From positions 62,001-126,000 of the forward strand of contig NZ_QMEL01000005.1 in the NCBI RefSeq assembly GCF_003390885.1: a stretch of DNA of 64,000 bases, read 5' to 3'. Shown one piece after another: positions 4,857-54,359 of the stretch (the first letter of the stretch is position 1; the number at the start of each line of letters is the position of its first letter). The notes below the pieces were generated by a model that ran no database searches, was not told the DNA's origin, and saw only the letters and a list, made by a program, of their open reading frames with translations. The translations under genes and the position numbers were made by a program. Source of the stretch: Pelagibacterium sediminicola (GTDB lineage: Bacteria; Pseudomonadota; Alphaproteobacteria; Rhizobiales; Devosiaceae).

Positions 4857-6278
4857 TTACACAATCATTCCATCCCGCTCAAGCCAGTGGCGCACGCCCT
4901 TGCCCGCCCAGCATCCTGTTGCAAGGCAGGCGGTGAGCAGATAGCCGCCGGTTGGCGCCTCCCAATCGAGCATTTCGCCCGCAACGAAGACGCCCGGCAG
5001 CGCTTCCAGCATCAGGTTTTCATCCACCGCCTCCCACGCAATGCCGCCCGCCGAGGAAATCGCCTCGGCAATCGGGCGCGGGCGCTCAACGGGGAGCGGC
5101 AACGCCTTGATGCGGGCGGCAAGAGTTTGAGGCTGGCTCCGCTCGCCCACCGTGGAAAATGCCCGCACCAGCGCGGCCTTCACCGGATCGAGCCCGGCCT
5201 TGCGCAACCGGTTTGAAAAGCTCGCCTTGCGCCCGGCCTTTTCCAGATCGCGCGCAATCCGCGCCGCGTCCCGGCCCGGCAGGAGATCGAGGATGAGAAT
5301 GGCTTCCCCATCACGCTCCAACGCATCGCGCAACGCAGCGGAATGAGTGTAAACGAGGCTGCCTTCGATCCCCGTGCGGGTGATGACGAATTCGCCCCGC
5401 GATGTGCCCGATGCGGAGGTTGCGGCGACGGATTTGACCGGCATTCCGGCAAACCGGCTGCCGATCTCTTCCGGCCAATCCACATCGAACCCGCAATTGG
5501 CGGGGCGGAAGGGGAGGATCGGAATGCCCTTGTCGGCCAGCCACGGAACCCACGCAGCATCCGCCCCGAGTCGGGGCCAGCTCGCGCCACCCAGCGCGAG
5601 GATAACGGCGTCGAAATGGTAGGTTTGGGGGCCGGTGGGGGTGTCGAATTGAAAGGCGAGTCTTTGGCTGGTTTCAGAGCCGGCACCCCTCACCCCCAAC
5701 CCCTCTCCCTCAAGGGGAGAGGGGGGCGAAGGAGCCGAGGCATCCACGAAGTTCCCTTCTCCCCTTGTGGGATTGAGGAATGTCCCGAAGGGCAAATCGC
5801 TCCAGTGGAGCGATTTGAATGACGAAAGTGGGCCGGCGAAGCCGGGTCGGATGAGGGGTGCAGCGATGCCAGCAAACCCCACCCAGCGATGCCGCGTAAG
5901 CACCGTTACCCCGCGCGCCTCCAAACGCGCGAGCCACGCACGCAGCAACGGCGATGCCTTCATGGCCACCGGGAACACCCGTCCCGACGATCCCGTGAAC
6001 GTCTCCTGCCCCAAACCCGCCGCCCATTCCCGCGCATCGGCGCCGGTAAACGCATCGAGGATCGGACGCAGGCGATGGCCGGTCGTACCGAAGCGGGTGA
6101 GAAAATCGGCGTGCGGTTCGGCGTGGGTGAGGTTGAGGCCGGACTTCCCGGCCATCAGGAATTTGCGGCCCACGGTTGGCATGGCCTCGTAAACGGTGAC
6201 CTTGTGCCCTGTTGCGCAAAGAACCTCCGCCGCCATCAGCCCCGCCGGGCCGCCACCGATGATGCCGATGTGTTTCAT
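4857..6278 (-). CDS. TIGR03862/HI0933-like FAD-dependent oxidoreductase with repeat insertion
   Basis: A 473-aa flavoprotein of the HI0933/BaiN-like family. The FAD Rossmann motif is IGIIGGGPAGLMAAE near the N-terminus, followed by GRKFLMAGKSGLNLTH, and later LALGGASWPRLG and GGYLLTACLATG. Start: ATG at 6278 with GGAGGT 6 nt upstream. An open frame extends further but lacks homology. Residues about 136-207, between RHRWVGF and FQFDTPTGP, have no counterpart in the family. They are translated from a family A repeat (5683-5870), which gives the string SPLEGEGLGVRG. The insertion keeps the frame and lies between two conserved blocks. The catalytic role of this family is unknown. The protein is probably still made, but its activity is uncertain. 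Confidence 0.85.
   Translation of the reverse strand: MKHIGIIGGGPAGLMAAEVLCATGHKVTVYEAMPTVGRKFLMAGKSGLNLTHAEPHADFLTRFGTTGHRLRPILDAFTGADAREWAAGLGQETFTGSSGRVFPVAMKASPLLRAWLARLEARGVTVLTRHRWVGFAGIAAPLIRPGFAGPLSSFKSLHWSDLPFGTFLNPTRGEGNFVDASAPSPPSPLEGEGLGVRGAGSETSQRLAFQFDTPTGPQTYHFDAVILALGGASWPRLGADAAWVPWLADKGIPILPFRPANCGFDVDWPEEIGSRFAGMPVKSVAATSASGTSRGEFVITRTGIEGSLVYTHSAALRDALERDGEAILILDLLPGRDAARIARDLEKAGRKASFSNRLRKAGLDPVKAALVRAFSTVGERSQPQTLAARIKALPLPVERPRPIAEAISSAGGIAWEAVDENLMLEALPGVFVAGEMLDWEAPTGGYLLTACLATGCWAGKGVRHWLERDGMIV
5683..5870. repeat. family A multi-hairpin repeat, copy 1, inside a CDS
   Basis: An element of about 188 bp bounded by GCACCCCTCA and TGAGGGGTGC. It contains CCCTCTCCCTCAAGGGGAGAGGG, GAAG/CTTC blocks and a long AATCGCTCCA/TGGAGCGATT palindrome (about 5799-5818). 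It shares its order of blocks with copies at 36851, 41338, 49309 and 54214. This copy lies wholly within the flavoprotein gene and is read through in frame. Confidence 0.85.
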
Positions 6279-6306
6279 CTGACCTCCTAGGCCGTCGTGA
6301 GCGCCG

Positions 6307-6437
6307 CTGCACCCCTCCCCGGCCCTCCCCATCAAGGGGAGGGTGCTTCCTCTTTGCCAGGCTGTCTCCATGCGCACAGAGCCAGCACCTCCCCCCTTGT
6401 GGGGGAGGCTGGGAGGGGGGGCGGCGCAAGCCGAAAC
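6307..6437. repeat. family B repeat, copy 1
   Basis: GCACCCCTCCC...CCCCATCAAGGGGAGGGTG at the left and CACCTCCCCCCTTGTGGGGGAGG...GGAGGG at the right, followed by CGGCGCAAGCCGAA. The same order occurs at 28134-28258. It fills the flavoprotein/aminopeptidase intergenic gap and is related in style to family A. Confidence 0.8.
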
Positions 6438-28042: not shown

Positions 28043-28133
28043 CTTTGGACTTCTGTGAGATGCCGTACGCCCCGGCTCTTTCGCTCCCTCCCCTTGAGGC
28101 AGGGCTATCGCATCTAGATTAGCGAGTGTGGCT

Positions 28134-28258
28134 TCACCCCTCCCTAGCCCTCCCCATCAAGGGGAGGGTGTTTCCTTTGCTTGGCCGTCTTCCTACGCAC
28201 AAGGCCAGCACCTCCCCCTTGTGGGGGAGGTTGGGAGGGGGGATCGGCGCAAGCCGAA
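28134..28258. repeat. family B repeat, copy 2
   Basis: TCACCCCTCCC...CCCCATCAAGGGGAGGGTG, then CACCTCCCCCTTGTGGGGGAGG...GGGAGGG, then TCGGCGCAAGCCGAA, in the same order as at 6307. It fills the 319-nt gap between convergent usp and the DUF192 gene; nothing else is seen in that gap. Confidence 0.8.
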
Positions 28259-36850: not shown

Positions 36851-37046
36851 GCATCGCAGCCCCCTCACTCCCAGCCCTTCTTCGGCTCCAATCGCTCCAC
36901 TGGAGCGATTGGTGGCTGCGCCACCACCTCGAAGTCCCACGAGGGGAGAGGGGGGCTCATATGGTTGCCCCACGGTTCCCCTTCTCCCCCTCGTGGGAGA
37001 AGGTGGCCGGAGCGAAGCGGAGGTCGGATGAGGGGGCCAGCGATGC
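36851..37046. repeat. family A multi-hairpin repeat, copy 2
   Basis: CCCCCTCACTCCCAGCCC at the left, AATCGCTCCACTGGAGCGATT palindrome, CCACGAGGGGAGAGGGG and CTTCTCCCCCTCGTGGGAGAAG, then GCCGGAGCGAAGCGG and GTCGGATGAGGGGG at the right. It fills the gap between convergent SDR and recJ. Confidence 0.8.
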
Positions 37047-37074
37047 TAGAACCAGCACCAAACAAATCGCCTCA

Positions 37075-41337: not shown

Positions 41338-41484
41338 GCACCGCTGCACCCCTCACCCCCAACCCCTCTCCCGCAAGGGGAGAGGGGGGCTCAAGAGCCG
41401 AGGAGCCACAGTTTCCCTTCTCCCCTTGCGGGAGAAGGTGGGCTTTCGCGCACGCGAAAGGTCGGATGAGGGGTGCGCGATGCC
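41338..41484. repeat. family A multi-hairpin repeat, copy 3
   Basis: GCACCCCTCACCCCCAACCC, CCCGCAAGGGGAGAGGGG, CTTCTCCCCTTGCGGGAGAAG, GGCTTTCGCGCACGCGAAAGG and GTCGGATGAGGGGTGC. Archetypal copy: closing stem GCACCCCTCA/TGAGGGGTGC encloses three hairpins. Confidence 0.85.
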
Positions 41485-41535
41485 TACCGCAACCGCCGAA
41501 TATCGCGGTCTCACACCTTCTTCTACACTGCCCCG

Positions 41536-49216: not shown

Positions 49217-49308
49217 GAGATACCTCTTTCCGGCAGAATGTGCGATCCTGCTACAACCATAGCGGGGCCATGCGCGCAAGAAAAGCACCGCCTGCCCGTG
49301 CCGCAAAC

Positions 49309-49454
49309 ATCGCCCCCCTCACCCCCAGCCCCTCTCCCACAGGGGGAGAGGGGGGCTCGTAGGCCGAGACATCCGCAGGGTTCCCTTCTCCCCTCGCGGG
49401 AGAAGGTGGGCTTTCGCGCAAGCGAAAGCTCGGATGAGGGGGCAGCGATGCCTA
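49309..49454. repeat. family A multi-hairpin repeat, copy 4
   Basis: CCCCCCTCACCCCCAGCCC, CAGGGGGAGAGGGG, CTTCTCCCCTCGCGGGAGAAG, GGCTTTCGCGCAAGCGAAAGC, CTCGGATGAGGGGGC. Its right edge GCGATGCCTAC, shared with copy 3, contains the complement of the TAG stop codon of the FAH-family gene (49452-49454). Confidence 0.85.
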
Positions 49455-53510: not shown

Positions 53511-54232
53511 TGTGCGCCTCCCGCCATGAAGGCTTCGTAATCCGCCGGATCGTGCGCCACCACCATGAAGCGCATGTCCGTGTGCCCCATCCCGCAGAAT
53601 TCCGCGCACACCCCGTTATAGGCGCCCGGGCGATCCGCCTTGATCCGCACCACGTTCTCATGGCCGGGAATGGCGTCGATCTTGCCCGCCAGCCGGGGCA
53701 CCCAGAACGAATGGACCACATCGCTCGAGGTCACCAGCACATCGACCGCCTGCCCCGCCGGGATATGGAGCACATCGGTTTCCCCCGCCCCCGGATGGTC
53801 GGGATAGGAAAACCGCCACACCCACATCTCGCCCCTTGCCGCAACGCGCGGCACATTCTCATCGGGATGGGCCAGCAGCCGCTCCCCGGCAAACAGCGCG
53901 TAACCGACCAGCGCCGTCAAAACCACGACAGGCATCACCAGCCCGCCATAAACCACCCAGTCCCGCCCCCGAACCCGCGCGCCCACACCGGGCCTCAAAT
54001 AAACCAGCGCGAGCAACGCAAAAACCAGCAGGGCCAACACCGTCGCTCCACCCAGCATCACCCACCACAACCCCGCACTCGACGCAGCGGCAGGACCTGC
54101 GGGATCGAGCGTCGAGAGCGGGCCGGTGCAGGCGGAAAGCCCTAGCGGCAGGAACCATCTTCCCCATCGCGCCGTTGCTTGGGCGAAACCAACACAACGC
54201 TGAGTTCTACGCTGGCACCGCGCACCCCTCAC
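53507..54232 (-). CDS. ctaC: cytochrome c oxidase subunit II, start inside a repeat
   Basis: About 241 aa. The lipoprotein signal WFLPLGLSAC is followed by two membrane helices and the CuA domain, with VHSFWVPRL, CAEFCGMGHTDM (C-x3-C, H, M) as ligands. No cytochrome c domain, so aa3-type. The only nearby in-frame start codons are GTG 54232 and TTG 54238, both inside a family A repeat. The purine run GGGAGAGGGG of the repeat precedes them as a possible ribosome-binding site. ATGs at 54167 and 54158 are out of frame. Exact start uncertain; a frameshift near 54160 would be the alternative. Confidence 0.85.
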   Translation of the reverse strand: MRGARCQRRTQRCVGFAQATARWGRWFLPLGLSACTGPLSTLDPAGPAAASSAGLWWVMLGGATVLALLVFALLALVYLRPGVGARVRGRDWVVYGGLVMPVVVLTALVGYALFAGERLLAHPDENVPRVAARGEMWVWRFSYPDHPGAGETDVLHIPAGQAVDVLVTSSDVVHSFWVPRLAGKIDAIPGHENVVRIKADRPGAYNGVCAEFCGMGHTDMRFMVVAHDPADYEAFMAGGAQ

Positions 54233-54359
54233 CCCCAACCCCTCTCCCTCAAGGGGAGAGGGGGGCTCAAGAGCCGAGGAGCCCCGGATACCCTTCTCCC
54301 CTTGAGGGAGAAGGTGGCCGGAGCGAAGCGGAGGTCGGATGAGGGGTGCTGCGGTGCCA
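54214..54359. repeat. family A multi-hairpin repeat, copy 5, at the ctaC start
   Basis: GCACCCCTCACCCCCAACCC, CCCTCAAGGGGAGAGGGG, CTTCTCCCCTTGAGGGAGAAG, GCCGGAGCGAAGCGG, GTCGGATGAGGGGTGC. It fills almost the whole space between divergent ctaC and the DUF2231 gene, so the oxidase promoter must lie in or be replaced by it. Confidence 0.85.

What the first reader, a model, noticed from the sequence alone, without database searches (positions are those of the whole stretch)
5683..5870. Repeat element inserted in frame inside a flavoprotein gene
A family A repeat of about 188 bp, otherwise intergenic (36851, 41338, 49309, 54214), lies inside the HI0933-like flavoprotein gene. It adds about 70 residues between two conserved blocks without breaking the frame. 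This is like the Rickettsia palindromic elements that live in coding regions, but I do not know it described for this repeat. The translated core SPLEGEGLGVRG is Gly/Pro/Glu-rich and may form a surface loop.
Basis: partly seen in the sequence, partly recalled or inferred. Interest (0 to 1): 0.72.

Follow-up and report, generated by a model that had tools for sequence, protein, structure and literature searches.

The report
Mobile palindrome translated inside an enzyme
A short mobile DNA palindrome appears to have landed, in reading frame, inside a bacterial enzyme gene that still looks functional, adding a floppy loop; related repeats have done the same in other enzymes, and such repeats sit next to a little-studied nuclease gene that may move them.

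Summary
Confirmed and widened. A ~196-bp copy of a dispersed palindromic element lies in frame in an HI0933-like flavoprotein gene (window 4857-6278, minus). 0 of 12 other genomes of the genus (Pelagibacterium) and 0 of 80 relatives from named genomes (one of them also among the 12) have a comparable insert. The gene still looks functional: it matches 51 of 51 invariant columns, with dN/dS as low as between relatives. AlphaFold puts the insert in a disordered turn.

The genome has about 108 copies. Of 105 examined, four lie in frame in recognisable genes: flavoprotein, PutA, CobN, CobG. The CobG copy is identical over 145 nt to an intergenic copy: recent movement. CobN linkers are recurrent landing sites.

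Unexpected lead: DUF559 (Vsr-like nuclease) genes occur in exactly the 8 of 13 genus genomes where the element was found. All 11 have a repeat within 85 nt upstream of the domain. In 25 DUF559 loci strong hairpins are about 40 times denser beside the gene than elsewhere. DUF559 is a candidate mover; correlation only. In-frame palindromes are known from Rickettsia: new variant of a known kind.

The parts
4857..6278 (-). HI0933-like flavoprotein gene, 473 aa, host of the insert
   Evidence: Open frame; Pfam HI0933_like E 2.8e-63 and HI0933_like_1st E 3.9e-21
5675..5870 (+). Long-form copy (~196 bp) of the palindromic element ('family A'), left arm at the 5675 side; read in frame on the minus strand
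   Evidence: Matches seven other long copies over nearly its whole length; 87-89% identical to the four best of them; ends as
5661..5861 (-). Codons (about residues 140-206) with no counterpart in relatives; predicted disordered
   Evidence: Alignments; AlphaFold mean pLDDT 33-54 in the blocks of residues 141-200, above 90 in most of the rest
36926..37054 (+). Family A relative, intergenic; not among the 105 because its core is too divergent
41338..41485 (+). Family A copy, intergenic
49304..49453 (+). Family A copy, between two genes
54214..54358 (+). Family A copy upstream of a COX2 gene
6299..6435 (+). Family B palindromic element directly upstream of the flavoprotein start
   Evidence: D4, D7; 24 places in the ~0.6 Mb of own genome held; a family B copy sits in frame in CobN
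28124..28258 (+). Second family B copy in the window

Best explanation
The feature is a copy of a non-autonomous mobile palindromic element (MITE/REP-like, ~145 bp, long form ~196 bp) that inserted in frame into a beta-hairpin turn of a flavoprotein. Shown: it is dispersed, multi-copy and hairpin-forming, absent from the gene in relatives, and the host gene shows purifying selection. Inferred: the insert is translated as a disordered, dispensable loop that selection tolerates rather than uses. Insertions that break genes are purged, so survivors sit in intergenic DNA or in frame in linkers (PutA inter-domain linker, CobN linkers, CobG, this turn). Also inferred, with less confidence (about 0.5): copies are moved, or were moved, by a DUF559 Vsr-like nuclease encoded beside the repeats.
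For: 108 core matches, control 0+1. Insert absent in 12 of 12 genus relatives and in 80 of 80 relatives from named genomes. Conserved residues kept: 51 of 51 invariant, 120 of 123 near-invariant columns. dN/dS own-G006 0.158 against G006-G008 0.179. AlphaFold: insert disordered, flanking strands intact; top PDB matches 2i0z, 4cnj, 2gqf, 3v76. Element folds as one nested hairpin, with double changes at 3 of 33 pairs. CobG copy 100% identical over 145 nt to an intergenic copy, identity ending 13 and 10 nt outside the core ends. PutA insert falls between residues aligned to 578 and 587 of solved PutA 5kf6; CobN inserts between 182/198 and 424/430 of solved CobN 9uk9. Among 31 Devosiaceae CobN sequences the three most variable gaps are those that hold the element-model hits (hits in 19 of 31 at E 1e-2, 12 of 31 at 1e-5); the one hit outside them lies before the start of the CobN alignment in G018.
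Against: No protein or RNA data: translation of the loop is inferred. No target-site duplication was found and no Y1_Tnp/RAYT transposase, so the way it moves is unproved. Out-of-frame copies in broken genes were not searched exhaustively; codon scoring missed the known CobG case and left several same-strand, different-frame candidates, of which I looked at one (window 49304). The covariation has no control for shared descent. The own PutA insert is closer to another own copy (94%) than to the G006 insert at the same site (82%), so repeated insertion or conversion complicates dating. Element DNA differs between species less than synonymous sites do, which simple neutral drift does not explain.
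Confidence: 0.85

Rival explanations
1. The gene is a decaying pseudogene or is split by the repeat into two polypeptides, and the open frame through the repeat is luck.
For: The element is stop-free in 2.7 of 6 frames on average, no different from shuffled, so an open frame by luck is easy.
Against: Both sides of the insert keep their conserved residues (51 of 51 invariant), and dN/dS is no higher than between insert-free relatives. The predicted fold uses both sides.
Confidence: 0.07
2. The inserted peptide is an adaptive new segment kept by selection on its sequence.
For: The same CobN linkers hold repeat-derived inserts in many Devosiaceae; PutA inserts share site, orientation and frame in own, G006 and, in part, G008.
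Against: PutA insert differences are spread 11/8/10 over codon positions 1/2/3, against 161/132/521 in the rest of the gene. Different repeat families, both orientations and different frames are used. The flavoprotein insert is predicted disordered.
Confidence: 0.06
3. DUF559 genes merely home into, or get trapped in, pre-existing palindromic repeats, which are moved by something else.
For: DUF559 domains sit inside repeat-filled CobN linkers in G038 and G048. Family A shows no target duplication. In 16 of 25 DUF559 loci no repeat shared by both flanks was found.
Against: Presence and absence match 8/8 and 5/5 in the genus; both own repeat families have a DUF559 gene beside one copy; the Deinococcus proteolyticus flanking repeat has only 2 places in its plasmid record, and an inverted copy lies on the other flank of DUF559 (its chromosome was not searched).
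Confidence: 0.35

Closest known systems
Rickettsia palindromic elements (RPE)
   Same: Palindromic repeats of ~150 bp found in frame inside unrelated genes; a review calls their contribution to protein evolution unexplored and a similar process in other prokaryotes conceivable (PMC10969869, passages).
   Different: Free-living Hyphomicrobiales; few copies in genes (4 of 105 examined); no sign of a favoured peptide; sequence relation to RPEs not tested.
Intragenic GTAG/CGTC REPs with RAYT transposases
   Same: Palindromic units, some inside ORFs of known proteins; for GTAG REPs, repeats flanking a candidate enzyme gene (PMC3733652, passages).
   Different: Unit is ~145 bp, not 20-40; no Y1_Tnp match in this genome; the neighbouring gene is DUF559.
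ERIC / RU elements with intragenic ORFs
   Same: Small mobile repeats fused in frame with genes (PMC2759123, passages).
   Different: Other hosts; no DUF559 link in the passages read; sequences not compared.
Rhizobium RIME elements
   Same: Rhizobial intergenic mosaic repeats of unknown function (PMC2573895, passages).
   Different: Family A finds no rhizobial plasmid at E 1e-6. The repeat beside a Sinorhizobium DUF559 gene does find 269 records, 119 Rhizobium and 88 Sinorhizobium; whether those are RIMEs was not tested.
Vsr-like / DUF559 endonucleases (Caulobacter VsrA)
   Same: Same domain, PD-(D/E)XK superfamily (PMC12907096, passages).
   Different: Studied there as a putative mismatch-repair nuclease; 'palindrom' occurs 0 times in that paper's main text.

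Membership tests
MITE | Short, multi-copy, non-coding, terminal inverted repeats | tested here: met
   105 copies examined; CCCCTCA...TGAGGGG ends paired in 86 distinct copies; the outer 7-nt ends GCAYCGC...GCGRTGC are both intact in 39 of 105
MITE | Target-site duplication | tested here: not met
   39 of 105 copies with both 7-nt ends; no clear excess of matching flanks over shuffles
MITE | Ends match an autonomous element with its transposase | tested here: inconclusive
   Family A copy directly upstream of a DUF559 gene; a repeat shared by both flanks in 9 of 25 DUF559 loci
Rickettsia palindromic element | Palindrome in frame in unrelated genes that stay under selection | tested here: met
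   Four genes in own genome; dN/dS own-G006 0.09-0.21 outside the inserts
Rickettsia palindromic element | Sequence homology to an RPE family | not tested
   No RPE sequence was compared
Rickettsia palindromic element | High share of copies in genes | tested here: not met
   4 of 105 examined
REP moved by RAYT | Y1_Tnp gene flanked by the repeat | tested here: not met
   0 matches in own genome; the same search rings in 5 of 14 control genomes
RIME | Sequence similarity to rhizobial repeats | tested here: inconclusive
   Family A in 'distant' mode against plasmids finds 6 records, Azospirillum (5) and Thiothrix (1), none rhizobial; no labelled RIME sequence was at hand

The most novel reading that the evidence does not exclude
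DUF559 Vsr-like nucleases are the mobilising enzymes of a very widespread class of GC-rich palindromic repeats (those read as 'SPLEGEGLGVRG'-like peptides). A DUF559 gene with repeats beside or around it is the autonomous unit; families A and B here are non-autonomous copies served by the two DUF559 genes of this genome; the in-frame inserts in flavoprotein, PutA, CobN and CobG are tolerated landing scars.
Probability: 0.5. Interest if true: 0.88.

Novelty: new variant of a known kind. Interest (0 to 1): 0.72.

Why it matters
It shows in a bacterium outside the Rickettsiales, with insert-free relatives at hand, that a mobile palindrome can be absorbed into genes that stay under selection, and that the same linkers are hit again and again. 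If the DUF559 link holds, it gives a candidate enzyme to a large class of orphan repeats and a role to a domain family that only 14 papers of the searched library mention. Both can be tested directly.

Tried and rejected
Ideas dropped. (1) Peptide-level selection on the insert: spoken against by open-frame shuffles and codon-position counts in PutA. (2) RAYT as mover: no Y1_Tnp match. (3) Target duplications: none clear. (4) RIME membership by sequence: no rhizobial hit with family A. (5) Codon-usage scoring to find in-gene copies: too weak, it missed CobG; replaced by Pfam on the 33 spanning frames of all 29 elements that have one. (6) Rfam: only three tRNAs in the window. (7) A site-1 motif for CobN (end) matched nothing because the pattern was bad; redone by alignment, which also cover the ten linkers (nine without the first motif, one without the second) that one search missed.

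Limits. One search scored 40 of 138 candidates and at most 7 per genome, so copy counts there are lower bounds. The absence of the element rests on 7 of 10 candidates in G012, 7 of 13 in G002, 7 of 17 in G001, and all in G009 (6) and G010 (7). One search counted 108 places and listed 100. The 105 come from a slightly laxer search (up to 4 mismatches) of the fetched stretches and the window. The 76 elements without a spanning frame were not each shown to be intergenic. CobN: 31 sequences with loci, although one search found CobN in 56 of 61 genomes. Many CobN inserts are repeat-like by eye only; 19 of 31 sequences have an element-model hit. The DUF559 loci are not independent: by eye the 11 genus loci are three genomic sites and the 14 PLSDB loci about eleven contexts. 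Of 29 PLSDB records with DUF559, 14 were fetched; 15 were left out (5 of E. coli, Neisseria and Klebsiella, 2 near duplicates of Sinorhizobium, 4 Azospirillum, 2 Deinococcus, 1 Sphingomonas, 1 Synechocystis). In 4 of 25 DUF559 loci (L266, L267, L276, L281) the strict hairpin test found nothing nearby; L266 and L267 have element-model hits, L276 and L281 inverted repeats across the gene. By fold energy the upstream side is among the three best windows of its locus in 10 of 14 PLSDB loci (not L272, L276, L279, L281) and 7 of 11 genus loci (not L258-L261). My notebook says 9 of 14; the recount is 10.

Full report
OBSERVATION. The window lies in a 3.24 Mb genome whose genus mates are Pelagibacterium: one, G004, has a contig of the same length, 178257 bp, as Pelagibacterium lacus XYN52 contig 7. 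The flavoprotein gene runs 6278-4857 on the minus strand, 473 aa, with Pfam HI0933_like domains. The repeat copy spans 5675-5870. The core CCCTCACCCCCAACCCCTCTCCC with up to 3 mismatches has 58+50 matches in the genome and 0+1 for the reversed control. I fetched stretches around the listed places and recovered 105 elements with up to 4 mismatches. The common form is ~145 bp; a long form of ~196 bp with a different middle comprises the window copy and seven others.

THE ELEMENT. 86 distinct standard copies fold as one nested hairpin of 33 consensus pairs; three pairs show double changes (82 of 2823 cells) and 56 cells are unpaired (no control for shared descent). The two ends are inverted repeats. 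The CobG copy and the intergenic copy at C25:52287 are identical over 145 nt, and the identity stops 13 nt left and 10 nt right of the core ends. That marks the unit and suggests recent movement. One other pair is 97% identical over 142 nt. No clear target duplication was seen among the 39 of 105 copies with both outer ends intact. Open frames in the element average 2.71 of 6 against 2.79 after dinucleotide shuffling: the element is not adapted to be coding.

THE INSERT IN THE FLAVOPROTEIN. None of 12 other genus genomes has it (the G009 gene is a fragment but covers the site). From W132 to L229 own has 98 residues, the 12 have 29-35, and 80 relatives from named genomes 29-63 (one of the 80, L061, is P. 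lacus and thus also among the 12). One of the 80, a Gallionellales protein (L032), has its own palindrome in the same region, with four further places at no more than one mismatch in its genome. The own protein matches all 51 columns that are invariant in the 80 and 120 of 123 near-invariant ones; in a leave-one-out count 50 of the 81 rank below it. dN/dS for own-G006 is 0.158, for G006-G008 0.179; against G012 0.211 (own) and 0.246 (G006); against G005 0.180 and 0.204. AlphaFold (81 sequences) gives mean pLDDT 89.1; block means are 33-54 for residues 141-200 and 49 at the last three residues, and the insert lies between strands 131-135 and 207-213. The fold matches 2i0z, 4cnj, 2gqf and 3v76.

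OTHER GENES. Of 105 elements, 29 have a stop-free frame reaching 50 codons on both sides. All 33 such frames were scanned with Pfam (for the flavoprotein, the gene itself). In four elements the frame is a recognisable gene on both sides: the flavoprotein; PutA (between proline dehydrogenase and aldehyde dehydrogenase domains); CobN (inside the CobN model); and CobG, where Pfam covers one side only and relatives match both sides. In the others Pfam finds a domain on one side or none. The window fraction covered by long ORFs is 0.89, a crude proxy for coding density, so 4 of 105 in genes is a strong deficit. Comparison with the 12 relatives: the CobG insert is in own only. PutA has a full copy in G006 and a partial one in G008, same place, orientation and frame (element-model E 1e-23 and 1e-11). 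CobN carries repeat-like inserts at two linkers in several genomes; read on the coding strand, the G003 copy is in the opposite orientation to those of own and G011. The tree groups own with G006 (1.00) and G008 with G012 (0.985); G012 lacks the PutA insert.

HOT SPOTS. In 31 Devosiaceae CobN sequences only four gaps between conserved columns vary by 12 residues or more. The three largest (own residues 168, 191, 472) are where element-model hits fall, apart from one hit before the start of the CobN alignment in G018. 19 of 31 have a hit at E 1e-2 and 12 of 31 at 1e-5. Inserts differ in family, length and order; several genomes have none. By alignment to solved structures, the PutA and CobN inserts lie in short linkers.

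THE PEPTIDE. Own and G006 PutA inserts differ at 11, 8 and 10 first, second and third codon positions, against 161, 132 and 521 in the rest of the gene. So the peptide does not look constrained as a protein. The insert DNA is, however, 80% identical while dS in the gene is 0.89. The own insert is 94% identical to another own copy and 82% to the G006 one. Conversion, re-insertion or DNA-level constraint is needed to explain this; I cannot choose among them.

THE DUF559 LEAD. In G038 and G048 the CobN linker holds a DUF559 domain in frame (Pfam E 4.8e-33 and 4.1e-26, inside two-part CobN matches), bounded by repeat-derived stretches. In the genus, DUF559 (PF04480) occurs in G000, G003-G008 and G011 and not in G001, G002, G009, G010, G012. 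The element (E 1e-8) was found in exactly the same 8 and not in the same 5 (at most 7 candidates scored per genome, see limits). All 11 DUF559 loci have an element-model hit (E 1e-35 to 3e-4) within 85 nt of the domain on the upstream side, one also downstream. Own DUF559 number 1 (C41:49114) has family A; number 2 (C43:117895) has family B. In G006 the DUF559 match covers only model positions 39-108 and the element survives as a few remnants, including those in PutA and CobN. In PLSDB, 29 records have DUF559. In the 14 fetched plus the 11 genus loci, perfect hairpins (arm 9 or more, loop 3-8) number 41 in 15,000 nt beside the domain and 4 in 60,025 nt elsewhere. 21 of 25 loci have one nearby, against a mean of 0.5 and a maximum of 3 in 1000 sets of random positions. 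A repeat shared by both flanks was found in 9 of 25 loci; two Deinococcus loci have 56- and 71-nt inverted repeats around the gene at 93-95% identity. The flanking repeat has 39 places in Sinorhizobium meliloti pSymB (possibly undercounted) and 24, 13, 18, 18 and 10 in five Azospirillum lipoferum plasmids, but only 2 in the Deinococcus proteolyticus plasmid.

LITERATURE. In-frame palindromes are known in Rickettsia, and REP and ERIC units in genes are known elsewhere (PMC10969869, PMC3733652, PMC2759123; passages read). I found no paper linking DUF559 to such repeats: searches list 9 and 14 papers (titles and abstract starts seen; passages of one, PMC12907096, read), searches return none, and one search returns one, seen in the listing only. 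A search naming Pelagibacterium and Devosia with repeat terms listed 15 of 58 papers and, by titles and abstract starts, none on repeats of these genera. The library holds open-licence papers only, so absence there is weak evidence.

VERDICT. The insertion is real, in frame and tolerated by a gene under selection: a new variant of a known kind. The DUF559 association is the most novel part and rests on correlation.

Noticed in passing
L249 and L253 (G038, G048 CobN), linker at own residue 472: Gaps of 206 and 245 residues that contain a DUF559 domain in frame inside CobN (Pfam), bounded by repeat-derived peptides.
   Followed up: partly
L262 (own C41:49114) and L266 (own C43:117895): The two DUF559 genes of this genome sit directly downstream of a family A and a family B repeat respectively.
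   Followed up: yes
L276 and L281 (Deinococcus plasmids): DUF559 gene bounded by 56-71 nt inverted repeats, next to hpa and paa catabolic genes; looks like a small mobile unit.
   Followed up: partly
L272 (Sphingomonas parapaucimobilis plasmid): DUF559 gene annotated between sufB and sufC.
   Followed up: no
L032 3440-3530 (Gallionellales flavoprotein): A different palindrome lies in frame in the same variable region of a related flavoprotein; four further places with at most one mismatch in that genome.
   Followed up: partly
window 6299-6435: A family B repeat sits about 20 bp upstream of the flavoprotein start, so the gene has repeats of two families in and beside it; the frame stays open through it to 6653.
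   Followed up: no
window 10239, 14400, 18111, 61085: A third short repeat family (CCCCGGCTTTCGCCGGGG type), four copies in the window; no partner gene sought.
   Followed up: no
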